DNA of 64,000 nt from Geodermatophilus sp. DSM 45219 (GTDB taxonomy: Bacteria > Actinomycetota > Actinomycetes > Mycobacteriales > Geodermatophilaceae). The position numbers and the translations under genes are program-made. Positions 2,324 to 60,192 of the stretch are shown here, in pieces. A model generated the notes under the pieces. It did not search any database and was not told the DNA's origin. It saw only the letters and a program-made list of their open reading frames with translations. Each line of letters starts with the position of its first letter. The stretch's first letter is position 1. Location of the stretch: NCBI RefSeq assembly GCF_900104025.1, contig NZ_FNIQ01000009.1:1-64000 (forward strand), written 5' to 3'.

Positions 2324-2382
2324 AGGAGCTCCTTGCCCCCCACCACTCGCGAGCTCGCGGCGGGGCCCTGCAGGGAGGCCGT
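2324..2382. repeat. GC-rich intergenic hairpin repeat R1
   Basis: Copy between two convergent genes, spanning ctccttgcccccc..gctcgcggcgg..cctgcagggaggcc. Inner stem intact, outer arms imperfect. Its right end abuts the stop codon of the minus-strand DUF4191 gene. See the repeat-family finding. Confidence 0.6.
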
Positions 2383-3224
2383 CAGCGGCGGCGGACCTGG
2401 CGCTGGCTGACCGACATCTGGCGGCCGCCGGGCAGCGGGCCGCCGGGGACCGGCATCCGGCTGCCGCCGAGCGCGGAGAGCCGCTTGCGCAGGGCGTTGA
2501 GCTCGGCGCCGGAGAGGTTGCGGGGCAGCTTCATGACGTGCGTGCTGAGCTTGCGCAGCGGCACCTGGCCCTCGGCGTCCCCGACGAGGAGGTCGTAGAT
2601 CGGGGCGTCGCCGGCGATCCGGGCGATCCGCTTCTTCTCCTGGGCCAGCAGCGGGCGCACGCGGGAGGGCACACCCTCGCCGACCAGGATGATGCCCGGC
2701 CGGCCGGTCACCCGGTGGACGGCGTCGAGCTGCGTGGTCCCGGCGACCCCGGAGGACACCTGCCAGTCGCCGCGCATGCCGTCGAGCACCCAGGCCGCGG
2801 CGCCCGGCTGACCCTCCACCTGGCGGTAGGCCGAGCCCTGCGCGCGGCGCCCGAACACGACCATCGCGGCCAGCGCGCCCAGCAGGACCGCCAGCGGCAG
2901 GAAGAGGAACGGCGAGCTCAGCAGGATGCCGATCAGCTCGACGACCGCGAACACCACCACGAAGGCGATGAGCATGAACCAGGGGAGCTTCGGGTCGTTC
3001 TTGCGGGTCAGCGAGTAGGCCTGCTTGATCATGCGGGCCTGGTTGCCGACCTTCTTGAGCCGGCCGACCTTCGGCTGGCCGTCCTTGCCGGCCTTCGCCG
3101 CGCCCCGGCCGGAGGCCGTGGCCCCGGTCGACCCGCTCCGACGACGGAAGCGGGAGCCGGGCCCCGTGGCGGCCTTGCCGGTGCCGGCGGGCGCGGGGGA
3201 GTCGCTGGGCCTGCTGCGTGCCAT
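2382..3224 (-). CDS. DUF4191 domain membrane protein
   Basis: A 280-aa protein with a basic, Ala/Pro-rich N-terminus (1-60), the conserved RMIKQAYSLTRKNDPKLPW segment, two adjacent transmembrane helices (about 85-135) and a soluble C-terminal domain ending in basic residues. This is the DUF4191 architecture, an actinobacterial family of unknown role that sits next to lipA in mycobacteria (Rv2219). The ATG at 3224 is preferred over an upstream in-frame start because TATCCT lies exactly where a leaderless -10 should be and earlier codons show no family similarity. Confidence 0.85.
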   Translation of the reverse strand: MARSRPSDSPAPAGTGKAATGPGSRFRRRSGSTGATASGRGAAKAGKDGQPKVGRLKKVGNQARMIKQAYSLTRKNDPKLPWFMLIAFVVVFAVVELIGILLSSPFLFLPLAVLLGALAAMVVFGRRAQGSAYRQVEGQPGAAAWVLDGMRGDWQVSSGVAGTTQLDAVHRVTGRPGIILVGEGVPSRVRPLLAQEKKRIARIAGDAPIYDLLVGDAEGQVPLRKLSTHVMKLPRNLSGAELNALRKRLSALGGSRMPVPGGPLPGGRQMSVSQRQVRRR

Positions 3225-3230
3225 GCCCAC

Positions 3231-3236
3231 AGGATA
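3231..3236 (-). promoter_or_regulatory. Candidate -10, leaderless DUF4191 gene
   Basis: TATCCT on the minus strand, 6 nt before the ATG; it decides the start at 3224. Confidence 0.5.
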
Positions 3237-3240
3237 GTCG

Positions 3241-3296
3241 GAGGACCAGCTGCCCCCCGCCGCTCGCAAGCTCGCGGCGGGCCCCTGCAGCAGGCC
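3241..3296. repeat. GC-rich intergenic hairpin repeat R2
   Basis: ggaccagctgccccccgccg...cggcgggcccctgcagcaggcc between the 3' end of lipA and the 5' end of the DUF4191 gene. Arms CAGCTG/CAGCAGG are only partly complementary; the inner GCCGC/GCGGCGGGC stem is intact. Confidence 0.55.
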
Positions 3297-3307
3297 GAAG
3301 GGCCTGG

Positions 3308-58000: not shown

Positions 58001-58137
58001 GGCTCTGCTCCCGTTCCTCCTGGCGGCTCGGGGTCGACCGCCAGGTGGCACATCGGCAGGTTGCGGCCGGTTGTGAACCGGAACGTCGCAACGCGGGTTA
58101 CGGACCCCACGGTTCACGTTCCCGCAGGTCACGTGCC

Positions 58138-59025
58138 TCAGGAGCGCAGGTGTGCCCAGTCCTCCGGGTGCGCGCGCAGGTGCTCGGCGACCGTCCGCGC
58201 GGGGTGCCCGGTCAGCCGGGGGACGACGTCGGTGACGCGGCCCAGCTGGCCTGCGGCGATCGCCCGGTAGCTGCTCACCCAGCCCTCGATCTCCCAGTCG
58301 GGGTGCCCGGACGGGCGCCGGGTGGCCCACGCCTCCTCGGTCGTCTGGCGCCGGTAGACCGCGGGCCGGCCGGTGACCTCGGCGAGCACGGCGGCGGCGT
58401 CGTCCAGGGTGAGCGCCTCCGGGCCGGTCACGTCCAGCGTGGCCCCGTCGAGCGCGGGGGAGCCGTCGAGCAGCACGGCGGCGGCCACGTCGGCGAGGTC
58501 GTCGCGGGAGACGAACGACGCCCGCCCGTCGCCGGCCGGCGCCGCGATCACCGACCGCCCGTCCTCGGGGTCGGCGAAGAACGGGACGAGGTCGGCGTAC
58601 ATCGCGTGCCGCAGCACCGTCGTCCGCAGGCCGGTGGCGGCCAGCGCCTCCTCGGTGGCGGCGTGCTGGCGGGCCAGGGTGAAGACCGCGTCCGGCGCGG
58701 CGCCCAGGAACGAGGTGTAGACGACCCGCCCGACGCCGGCGTCGGCGGCCGCGGCGACGGCGGTGAGGTGCTGCTGCAACCGGTCGGGGGCCTCCGCCGC
58801 GGACACCAGGTAGACGGTGTCCGCCCCGGCGAGGGCCGCGGTCAGGCCGGGACCGTCGGCGTAGCCGCCCGGGTTCTCCGTCACCTCGGCACCCGGCACC
58901 CGCGGCGCGCGGGCGGCGTCCCGGACCACCAGCCGCAGCCGGACGTCGTCCCGCCCGGCGAGCCGGTCCACGACACGACGGCCGAGCGCGCCGGTCGCCC
59001 CTGTGACGGCGATCACCCGCGGCAT
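58138..59025 (-). CDS. NmrA-like/SDR family NAD(P)-binding oxidoreductase
   Basis: A 295-aa atypical [24 protein letters not shown] gives the dinucleotide fold, followed by [34 protein letters not shown] and [28 protein letters not shown]. The Tyr/Lys pair of classic SDRs is not clear, so it may be a QOR2/azoreductase-type enzyme or an NmrA-like regulator. It lies beyond the chemoreceptor gene, same strand, and diverges from the PFK gene. Confidence 0.85.
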
Positions 59026-59104
59026 ACGATTCCGGCCCTGACCTGCGTCACCATGACACCCGCCAACCACCGGCAGCGCCCACACCTTCCCGAGGACGAA
59101 CACC

Positions 59105-60127
59105 ATGCGCATCGGCATCCTGACCGGCGGCGGCGACTGCCCGGGCCTGAACGCGGTGATCCGCGCGATCGTCCGCAAGAGCGTCCGGTCCGGCGACGAG
59201 GTGGTCGGCTTCCGGGACGGCTGGCGCGGCGTGCTCGAGGCCGACACCGTGCTCATGGACCTGGCCGCCGTCCGCGGCATCCTGCCCCGCGGCGGCACGG
59301 TGCTCGGCACCTCGCGGACCAACCCCTACGCGCTCGAGGGCGGCGCCGACCGGGTGCTGGCCACCCTCGAGCGGCTCGGTGTGGACGCGCTGATCCCGAT
59401 CGGGGGGGAGGACACCCTCGGGGTGGCCACGAAGCTCGCCGAGGCCGGTGTGCGGGTGGTCGGCGTCCCGAAGACCATCGACAACGACCTCGACGCCACC
59501 GACTACACCTTCGGCTTCGACACCGCCCTCGGCGTGGCCACCGAGGCGATCGACCGGCTGCACACCACAGGGGACAGCCACCACCGCACGCTCGTCGTCG
59601 AGGTGATGGGCCGGCACGCCGGGTGGATCGCGCTGCACGCCGGGATGGCCGGCGGCGCCACCGTCGTGCTCATCCCCGAGCAGCCCTTCGACGTCGACGC
59701 CGTCGTCGCGCACTGCCAGCGCCGGTTCGACTCCGGGTACTCGCCGATCGTGGTGGTGTCCGAGGGCGCCAAGCCCAGGGACGGCGACCTGGTGACGGCC
59801 ACGGGGGAACTCGACGCGTTCGGCCACGTCCGGCTCGGCGGCATCGGCACCGCACTCGCCTCGCTGATCGAGCAGCGCACCGGCCGGGAAGCGCGGGCCG
59901 TCGTCCTCGGGCACATCCAGCGCGGCGGCACGCCCTCGCCGTTCGACCGGGTGCTGGCCACCCGCTTCGGGCTGGCCGCGCTCGACGCGGTGCACGAGGG
60001 CGACAGCGGCGTCATGGTGGCGCTGCGCGGCACCGACATCGTGCGGGTGCCGCTGGCCGAGGCCACCGCGCAGCTGAAGCTGGTGCCCGTCGAGCGCTAC
60101 GCGGAGGTGGAGGTCTTCTTCGGTTGA
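59105..60127 (+). CDS. pfkA: 6-phosphofructokinase, probably pyrophosphate-dependent
   Basis: Phosphorylates fructose 6-phosphate. The 340-aa PFK-A group protein has [17 protein letters not shown], the fructose-phosphate site [23 protein letters not shown], and the allosteric/active motif EVMGRHAG. The phosphoryl donor motif reads GGEDT with Asp103 and the later Lys123 (E. coli positions 104 and 124). Asp104 plus Lys124 marks pyrophosphate-dependent enzymes such as that of Amycolatopsis methanolica, while ATP enzymes have Gly104. So PPi is the likely donor, allowing reversible flux. Start ATG after GAGGACGAACACC. Confidence 0.93.
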
Positions 60128-60129
60128 AC

Positions 60130-60192
60130 AAGGACCCCCCTGCCCCCCGCCCCTCGCACGCTCGCGGCGGGACCCTGCAGGGGGGCCGTTCC
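60130..60192. repeat. GC-rich intergenic hairpin repeat R15 (type A)
   Basis: aggaccccccctgccccccgcccctcgcacgctcgcggcgggaccctgcaggggggcc-like copy (59-62 bp) between pfkA and aroG. Outer arms CCCCCCTG/CAGGGGGG are perfect and differ from the CCCTCCTG/CAGGAGGG of other copies. Confidence 0.65.

What the first reader, a model, noticed from the sequence alone, without database searches (positions are those of the whole stretch)
2324..60192. Family of GC-rich hairpin repeats in about 15 intergenic gaps, with covarying arms
The same roughly 55-60 bp design recurs at about 15 sites: a GGACC-rich left arm, CCCCC-ACCGCTCGC, a GCTCGCGGCGGG centre and a right arm ending GGCC (type A), or GGCCCCGTCC...GGACGGGGTCCTT (type B). 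The arm sequences differ between copies yet stay complementary: CCCTCCTG/CAGGAGGG (R12), CCCCCCTG/CAGGGGGG (R15), CCCCCGTC/GACGGGGG (R6), CTGCTCCCC/GGGGAGCAG (R10). Such compensatory change implies selection for the stem. Most start right at a stop codon, but R5 and R7 are in divergent promoter regions and no copy has a U-tract, so simple termination does not explain all. They could be Rho-independent terminators of a high-GC type, RNA-stabilising 3' ends, or small non-autonomous mobile elements.
Basis: partly seen in the sequence, partly recalled or inferred. Interest (0 to 1): 0.72.

Follow-up and report, generated by a model that had tools for sequence, protein, structure and literature searches.

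The report
Mobile terminator-like hairpins in Geodermatophilaceae
The window carries copies of a short hairpin-forming DNA repeat that has spread through a whole family of soil bacteria; copies come and go between relatives, sometimes sit inside one another, and look like ready-made transcription stop signals.

Summary
Fifteen copies score 31-79 bits, then a gap to 18; 10 of 17 pairs change on both sides, 0/500 shuffles. "Type A" and "type B" are one element read on opposite strands, with arm subfamilies.

R1 finds it in 101 of 112 Geodermatophilaceae genomes, own included, in 0 of 16 genomes of other families, and marginally in one of 197 drawn from the class besides the own genome. About 385 copies are extrapolated for this genome.

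It comes and goes: orthologous gaps are filled or empty. Copies lie inside other copies (15 of 281; shuffled mean 2.0), with un-nested counterparts seen in four pairs. One copy adds 17 codons in frame.

Read GGCC->GGTCC, the hairpin folds better in 151 of 154 copies and has >=3 U in the next 8 nt in 121 of 152, against 13 of 152 on the other strand. So it resembles a directional intrinsic terminator whose U-tail often abuts a stop codon or -10-like box. The closest described kind is pneumococcal SPRITE. The mobilising process is unknown: Y1 transposase 0 of 108 genomes, Y2 1 of 108. Termination is inferred, not measured.

The parts
2321..2380 (+). copy 1 (strand = AGGACC->GGCC reading; the better-folding strand is the opposite one); after the stop of CDS 2066-2320(+), convergent gap
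   Evidence: R1 71.8 bits; gene calls
3238..3297 (+). copy 2, upstream of CDS 2382-3224(-)
   Evidence: 75.7 bits
11636..11695 (+). copy 3, convergent gap after stop of CDS 8720-11635(+)
   Evidence: 74.7 bits
12353..12412 (-). copy 4, directly after stop of CDS 12412-13146(-); no R1 match at this gap in 5 of 6 relatives, gap 48-49 bp shorter in 4
   Evidence: 77.8 bits
14451..14510 (-). copy 5, divergent gap 14393(-)/14540(+); no R1 match in 6 of 6 relatives, gap 76-79 bp shorter
   Evidence: 75.1 bits
20967..21026 (+). copy 6, convergent gap 20969(+)/21037(-)
   Evidence: 75.1 bits
22562..22621 (+). copy 7, divergent gap between an M17 aminopeptidase gene (-) and a gcvT-type gene (+), between two -10-like boxes
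   Evidence: 68.9 bits; Pfam
22638..22692 (+). half-element remnant with the GTTCCAGCACGTCACCGG tail
   Evidence: 17 bits
26622..26673 (-). copy 8, degenerate, convergent gap 26598(+)/26670(-)
   Evidence: 30.8 bits
27665..27782 (+). outer copy whose loop is replaced by copy 9; relative G013 has the un-nested form at this site
27695..27754 (+). copy 9, nested in the loop of the outer copy
   Evidence: 76 bits
33931..33986 (-). copy 10, after stop of CDS 33991-35613(-); no R1 match in 3 of the 4 relatives with anchors, gap 47-50 bp shorter (one of them keeps a short remnant)
   Evidence: 50.5 bits
39957..40017 (-). copy 11, convergent gap 39950(+)/40017(-)
   Evidence: 71.5 bits
40320..40380 (+). 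copy 12, upstream of CDS 40017-40304(-)
   Evidence: 65.8 bits
40381..40489 (+). tandem half-elements, 45-46 bp period, each right arm + GTTCC(A/C)GCACGTCACCGG
48576..48635 (-). copy 13, convergent gap 48556(+)/48635(-)
   Evidence: 79.2 bits
55256..55314 (+). copy 14, after stop of CDS 54493-55254(+); at this site G013 has a nested and G008 an un-nested copy
   Evidence: 56.2 bits
60128..60187 (+). copy 15, after stop of CDS 59105-60127(+)
   Evidence: 70.3 bits

Best explanation
This is a family of roughly 50-60 bp palindromic interspersed repeats, seen here only in Geodermatophilaceae, and each copy is a directional intrinsic terminator cassette. SHOWN: dispersed copies, two stacked stems that covary, gain and loss at orthologous sites, nesting in loops, and a strong folding and U-tail asymmetry between strands. 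INFERRED: on the strand reading GGCC...GGTCC-UUCU, RNA polymerase that runs through the copy forms the hairpin and stops at the short U-tract. The U-tail end often abuts the complement of a stop codon or a -10-like box, so a copy would block transcription that is about to enter a neighbouring gene, either antisense through its 3' end or as read-through into its promoter. UNKNOWN: what moves it. No Y1 transposase was found, so it would be a non-autonomous element moved by something else, or one spread by recombination.
For: Covariation of both stems. Pairing is better on the reverse strand: 94.1% of cells against 88.2% for the same 14 copies; MFE better in 151 of 154 copies, mean -36.7 against -30.1. 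One inner pair is A.C in 103 of 140 parsed copies, i.e. G.U on the other strand; excluding it, A.C against G.T is 61:15, whereas 98 non-family hairpins after stops give 14:15. At least 3 U in 8 nt: 121/152 on that strand, 13/152 on the other; non-family hairpins 16/98 sense and 4/98 antisense. Placement: 24 of 30 own and 79 of 88 relatives' stop-side copies begin within -6..+4 nt of the stop. In the own sample there are 14 copies per 40 convergent gaps, 25 per 134 tandem and 5 per 64 divergent (gaps counted only in the 16 of 21 sources with a hit). Gain, loss and nesting.
Against: No transcript 3' ends were available. The U-tract is short, and the 5-T consensus scan calls none of the copies in 1-40000. 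The strand asymmetry is similar in tandem gaps where the U-tail points antisense, so it does not follow the need of the upstream gene. Tandem copies point antisense more often than sense (16:9 own, 34:22 relatives). The model includes part of the A-rich flank, and only copies with clear arms could be parsed (140 of 186 distinct; 154 distinct from 191 anchored), which favours clear cases. Two nearly complete genomes of carrying genera have no match, so the repeat looks dispensable. I saw no target-site duplication and found no transposase.
Confidence: 0.58

Rival explanations
1. Selfish REP/MITE-like repeat with no host function; gene ends are simply where insertions are tolerated, and the strand asymmetry reflects a single-stranded DNA or RNA transposition intermediate.
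For: Asymmetry similar in all gene contexts; copy number very uneven, 0 in two >=99% complete genomes of carrying genera and 2-5 in three others (strict filters); nesting; in-frame insertion.
Against: Stems are kept through large sequence change at one site (though some of this could be replacement by new copies); a shortened copy in L111 keeps the outer stem; unrelated hairpins occupy some of the same gaps in other strains (by eye); U-tail enrichment.
Confidence: 0.22
2. Ordinary host terminators that arose in place and look alike through shared constraint, not through copying.
For: Location at gene ends; GC-rich hairpins are found at many mapped transcript ends in a high-GC actinobacterium (passages of PMC8269248).
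Against: Conserved loop and flank sequence in at least 151 copies of one genome, a shared 18-nt tail motif (141 matches with up to 3 mismatches against 15 for the reversed control), nested copies, and gaps that are filled or empty among relatives.
Confidence: 0.07
3. Bidirectional or 'I-shaped' terminator, or mRNA 3'-end stabiliser, acting on the strand of the upstream gene.
For: In tandem gaps the copies more often follow the upstream gene's stop in the AGGACC orientation (16 against 9 own, 34 against 22 relatives); that strand also folds (mean -30.1 kcal/mol).
Against: A.C mismatches are tolerated on exactly that strand, and it rarely has a U-tail (13/152).
Confidence: 0.13

Closest known systems
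[quoted passage not shown] suggested to be co-opted as terminators.
   Different: SPRITE is AT-rich (mean GC 28.1%) with an 18-bp duplex and a long U-rich tract, 30 copies in the genome studied, and no comparable empty site was found. This family is GC-rich with two stacked stems and a short U-tail, at least 151 copies in the own genome, most genomes of a bacterial family as hosts, and empty and un-nested orthologous sites.
REP elements, GTAG/RAYT and CGTC superfamilies (passages of PMC3733652)
   Same: Short high-copy palindromes; family size very uneven between species; CGTC REPs also lack an associated transposase.
   Different: Longer, GC-rich two-part stem; no Y1 transposase in 108 genomes. 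I did not test formally for a GTAG or CGTC tag. 'Actinobacteria' and 'Geodermatophilus' occur 0 times in that paper's main text.
Rickettsia palindromic elements (RPE), passages of PMC10969869
   Same: Palindromic insertions that can lie in frame inside genes (here L129).
   Different: RPEs are described as ~150 bp and each encoding a conserved peptide; here one in-frame case was seen.
Structured U-rich (HS-U-rich) and U-poor, I-shaped-like (HS-U-lack) 3' ends of Streptomyces clavuligerus (passages of PMC8269248)
   Same: The cut-offs used there (-23 kcal/mol; at least 3 U in 8 nt) are reached by most parsed copies on one strand (mean MFE -36.7; 121 of 152).
   Different: Those are mapped transcript ends, not a repeat family, and their energies were computed on 40 nt at 30 deg C, mine on the hairpin at 37 deg C.

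Membership tests
SPRITE-like terminator repeat (by function) | hairpin followed by U-rich tract on one strand | tested here: met
   121 of 152 copies have >=3 U in 8 nt on one strand, 13 of 152 on the other; the tract is short, and a 5-T scan of 1-40000 calls none
SPRITE-like terminator repeat (by function) | enrichment in convergent gaps and near CDS 3' ends | tested here: met
   own sample: 14 copies per 40 convergent gaps vs 5 per 64 divergent, Fisher p 0.0012; 24 of 30 stop-side copies within -6..+4 nt. In relatives 54 per 195 convergent vs 47 per 313 divergent, most of the latter at the one site the loci were centred on
SPRITE (as a sequence family) | AT-rich, AAAA/TTTT ends | tested here: not met
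   GC 65-87% in the clear hits
REP (GTAG/RAYT) | Y1 transposase (PF01797) in the genome | tested here: not met
   0 of 108 genomes; 5 of 14 control genomes ring
IS91/Helitron-like Y2 derivative | Y2 transposase (PF04986) in the genome | tested here: not met
   1 of 108 genomes, in a genus (g21) where R1 finds no copies in 4 of 4; none of the 14 control genomes rings, so the search has no positive control among them
MITE | terminal inverted repeats plus target-site duplication | tested here: inconclusive
   palindromic throughout; no duplication seen by eye at empty/filled pairs, and nested cases lose part of the loop
Intrinsic terminator | transcript 3' end at the U-tract | not testable with these tools
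   no transcriptome held
Known Rfam RNA family | covariance-model match | tested here: not met
   Rfam 15 scan of the window, E<=10: no match above gathering score at any copy; one sub-threshold overlap at copy 10 (RF00802, 23.2 bits against 88)

The most novel reading that the evidence does not exclude
A transposase-less mobile terminator: an element that lands with its U-tail end next to T-A-bearing signals (stop codons or -10 boxes) and in the loops of resident copies, so that insertion itself installs a directional transcription stop and insulates genes from antisense or read-through transcription across an entire bacterial family.
Probability: 0.25. Interest if true: 0.78.

Novelty: new variant of a known kind. 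Interest (0 to 1): 0.56.

Why it matters
If right, a whole family of desert, soil and stone bacteria takes many of its terminators from a spreading repeat rather than from point mutation. Many natural insertions with empty and un-nested counterparts would make it testable how termination, antisense control and leaderless promoters are rewired. It would also be a high-GC, actinobacterial counterpart to pneumococcal SPRITE.

Tried and rejected
Y1 transposase (PF01797) as mobiliser: 0 of 108 genomes. Y2 transposase (PF04986): 1 of 108, none of the control genomes rings. Rfam: nothing above threshold at the copies. Consensus terminator scan over 1-40000: none of the copies; 40001-64000 not scanned. 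A generic arm-complementarity test for nesting gave 20 observed against 12.7 expected at 10 bp and 3 against 2.2 at 12 bp, i.e. no clear signal; the family-specific test gave 15 against a mean of 2.0, so about 2 of the 15 may be chance. I considered that the copies carry their own stop codon; in the pairs read the host stop is mostly the same with and without the copy, so it was dropped.

Rows dropped and limits: 53 of 244 hits lacked the GGACC anchor or lay too near a locus end; 46 of 186 distinct copies could not be parsed for mismatch counts. Of 49 own and 165 relatives' hits, 47 and 164 could be classified by their neighbouring genes (30 further top-scoring own hits were kept apart, 29 classified), and 3 and 7 of these were then removed as overlaps, duplicates or chance. 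Gap backgrounds use only loci with at least one hit, 16 of 21 own and 60 of 80 relatives', so rates per gap are too high, though classes can be compared. L072 and L073 are the same sequence and both count. Copy counts per genome are capped by the number of candidates scored, and searches used stricter filters. Four of the six unnamed relatives have contigs as long as those of the named records L059, L062, L064 and L096, so they are probably the same genomes and not independent. The middle's output was cut and I did not read it.
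Full report
WHAT IS THERE. The window is contig C9, positions 1-64000, of a 4.97-Mb genome in 12 contigs. Its GC content is 75%. The closest named relatives of its M17 aminopeptidase (Pfam) are Geodermatophilus strains, up to 92% identical (the own record may be left out there), so I take it to be a Geodermatophilus. I called genes with my own codon-usage script, so exact starts are approximate. 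A covariance model R1 from 14 copies finds 15 window copies at 30.8-79.2 bits and then drops to 18.1 bits. In the reading AGGACC...GGCC each copy has an outer stem of about 8-9 bp plus a GG/CC foot with one bulged A, an 8-pair inner stem, and a loop of about 10 nt, TCGC-NN-GCTC. Arm subfamilies exist (CCCCGTCC, CCCCCTGC and others).

NOT CHANCE. Ten of 17 pairs have changes on both sides against a shuffled mean of 5.2, 0 of 500 shuffles, and sliding the partner by 1-3 columns drops the covariation score from 0.354 to 0.074 or less. These shuffles do not correct for relatedness. In 20 evenly spaced 20-kb stretches of the same genome there are 31 hits at E<=0.01, which extrapolates to about 385 per genome (Poisson 262-547); the whole-genome search gives 151, limited by the 150 candidates scored. 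Among family genomes, own included, 101 of 112 match; the 11 without are G041 and G069, at least 99% complete and of carrying genera, and all nine genomes of genera g21-g23; three others have only 2-5 matches. Outside the family, 0 of 16 relatives and, besides the own genome, 1 marginal hit (E 7e-5) in 197 genomes drawn from the class. No Rfam family reaches its threshold at a copy.

DIRECTION. The two strands are not equivalent. Counting the same 14 window copies on the reverse strand raises standard pairs from 88.2% to 94.1%, inner helix 83.0 to 95.5%. One inner pair is A.C in 103 of 140 parsed copies, which is G.U on the reverse strand; leaving it out, A.C against G.T is 61 to 15. As a control, 98 non-family hairpins found after stops in 363 tandem gaps give 14 to 15. 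The reverse strand has the better predicted energy in 151 of 154 copies. The tail after the hairpin holds at least 3 U in 8 nt in 121 of 152 copies on the reverse strand and 13 of 152 on the forward strand; the control hairpins give 16 of 98 sense and 4 of 98 antisense. By the cut-offs used for Streptomyces clavuligerus transcript ends (-23 kcal/mol, 3 U in 8 nt; passages of PMC8269248) most parsed copies would count as structured and U-rich in one direction. By a stricter consensus (5 T in 8) none of the copies in 1-40000 is called. The bias is similar in every context: A.C against G.T is 22:5 convergent, 15:7 divergent, 13:2 tandem with the U-tail antisense and 10:1 tandem with it sense. So it belongs to the element, not to the neighbouring gene. 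Caveat: the model includes a few A-rich flank positions, and clear hairpins are easier to parse.

PLACE. After filtering, 44 own-sample copies lie 14 in convergent gaps, 16 tandem after the upstream stop (U-tail pointing antisense), 9 tandem the other way (U-tail pointing at the downstream start) and 5 divergent; 157 copies in relatives give 54, 34, 22 and 47, of which 37 of the 47 are by coordinate, and five more in shorter loci, the one site upstream of the aminopeptidase gene on which the loci were centred. Gap background in the own sample: 134 tandem, 64 divergent, 40 convergent, counted in the 16 of 21 sources with a hit. Where the AGGACC end faces a stop codon, 24 of 30 own and 79 of 88 relatives' copies start within -6 to +4 nt of the stop. 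The spacing peaks sharply: a TGA starts 7 nt before GGACC in 20 of 58 own and 44 of 128 relatives' copies, and a TAG 5 nt before in 7 and 25. Where the same end faces a start codon, 41 of 69 relatives' copies but only 3 of 14 own lie 3-16 nt from it. At the aminopeptidase/gcvT site (Pfam) the copy sits between two boxes that look like -10 elements of leaderless promoters (promoter identity inferred).

GAIN AND LOSS. In 80 named loci around the aminopeptidase gene (165 hits) orthologous gaps are filled in some strains and empty in others. Of the ten gaps with hits, nine have a longer median when filled, by 8 to 59 bp (five of them by 41-54), and one is shorter by 289. In six relatives of the window, copy 4 has no R1 match in 5 of 6, with the gap 48-49 bp shorter in 4; copy 5 has none in 6 of 6; copy 10 has none in 3 of 4 with anchors (47-50 bp shorter); copies 14 and 15 have a same-orientation match in 6 of 6, although wide gaps at copy 14 in four of these make orthology there uncertain. 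Nesting: 15 of 281 copies lie inside another family hairpin, shuffled mean 2.0, maximum 6 in 50 shuffles; a cruder test showed no clear excess. I read four pairs with an un-nested counterpart: the window's 27665-27782 site against G013, G013 against G008 at the site of copy 14, L112 against L111, and L064 against L062 (the last is not among the 15). In these, by eye, the new copy replaces about 9-13 nt of the old loop region. L129 has a copy in frame inside a gene, 17 extra codons (51 bp) compared with L130, whose locus is 94.8% identical; the L130 protein matches pyridoxamine 5'-phosphate oxidase. In L085 a copy lies where a similar gene seems interrupted (flanks read by eye). Half-element arrays with an 18-nt tail motif (141 genome matches with up to 3 mismatches, 15 for the reversed control) suggest repeated replacement or tandem duplication at one site. 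The hairpin also seems to be kept after insertion: at the aminopeptidase site in 30 loci 12 of 16 pairs show changes on both sides (some could be replacement by new copies, and a few rows are shifted by a base in the alignment), and L111 has a shortened copy that keeps the outer arms.

MECHANISM. The best reading is a dispersed element that carries an intrinsic terminator. In convergent gaps and in tandem gaps of the second kind it would end the transcript of a neighbouring gene. In the first tandem kind it would stop antisense transcription. At leaderless promoters it would shield the start. Termination itself, and the enzyme or process that spreads the element, are not shown; Y1, Y2 and reverse-transcriptase families do not explain it.

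LITERATURE. The closest kind is SPRITE of pneumococcus (passages of PMC3049150): terminator-like, enriched at convergent 3' ends, in clusters of repeats inserted into one another. REP and RPE are related ideas (passages of PMC3733652 and PMC10969869). Four searches of the open-access library for such repeats in Geodermatophilus or actinobacteria (two returned nothing, two were read as listings, the last with 10 of 69 papers shown) returned no title describing this family. The one Geodermatophilaceae genome paper among them mentions palindromic repeats only as CRISPR (passages of PMC9686282). Subscription papers are mostly not in that library.

Noticed in passing
window 44821-44979 (+): c-di-AMP (ydaO/yuaA) riboswitch, 62.2 bits against a gathering score of 38, just upstream of an NlpC/P60-family gene, CDS 44996-46078.
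   Followed up: partly
window 4352-5545 (-): Gene with many 33-nt (11-residue) internal repeats, perhaps a long amphipathic or coiled-coil protein; weak, sub-threshold Pfam resemblance to the apolipoprotein domain.
   Followed up: partly
window 33887-33935: Near-perfect GC-rich palindrome, unrelated to the family, next to copy 10; its 3' part is kept in relatives that lack copy 10.
   Followed up: partly
aminopeptidase/gcvT gap of L067, L069, L074, L075, L078, L091, L111, L112, L117, L123, L129, L130, L137: Strains without the hairpin carry another conserved motif there, about TGAGGACGGCG(A/T)A, possibly a regulatory site (by eye).
   Followed up: no
window 40381-40489; genome pairs such as C9:132378/132423, C11:734508/734555, C6:157220/157266: Tandem half-elements at 45-47 bp spacing, in the window with differing right arms, as if left over from successive replacements.
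   Followed up: partly
L085 19919-19978: A copy lies inside what looks like an interrupted oxidase-type gene, apparently the same gene type that has the in-frame copy in L129.
   Followed up: no
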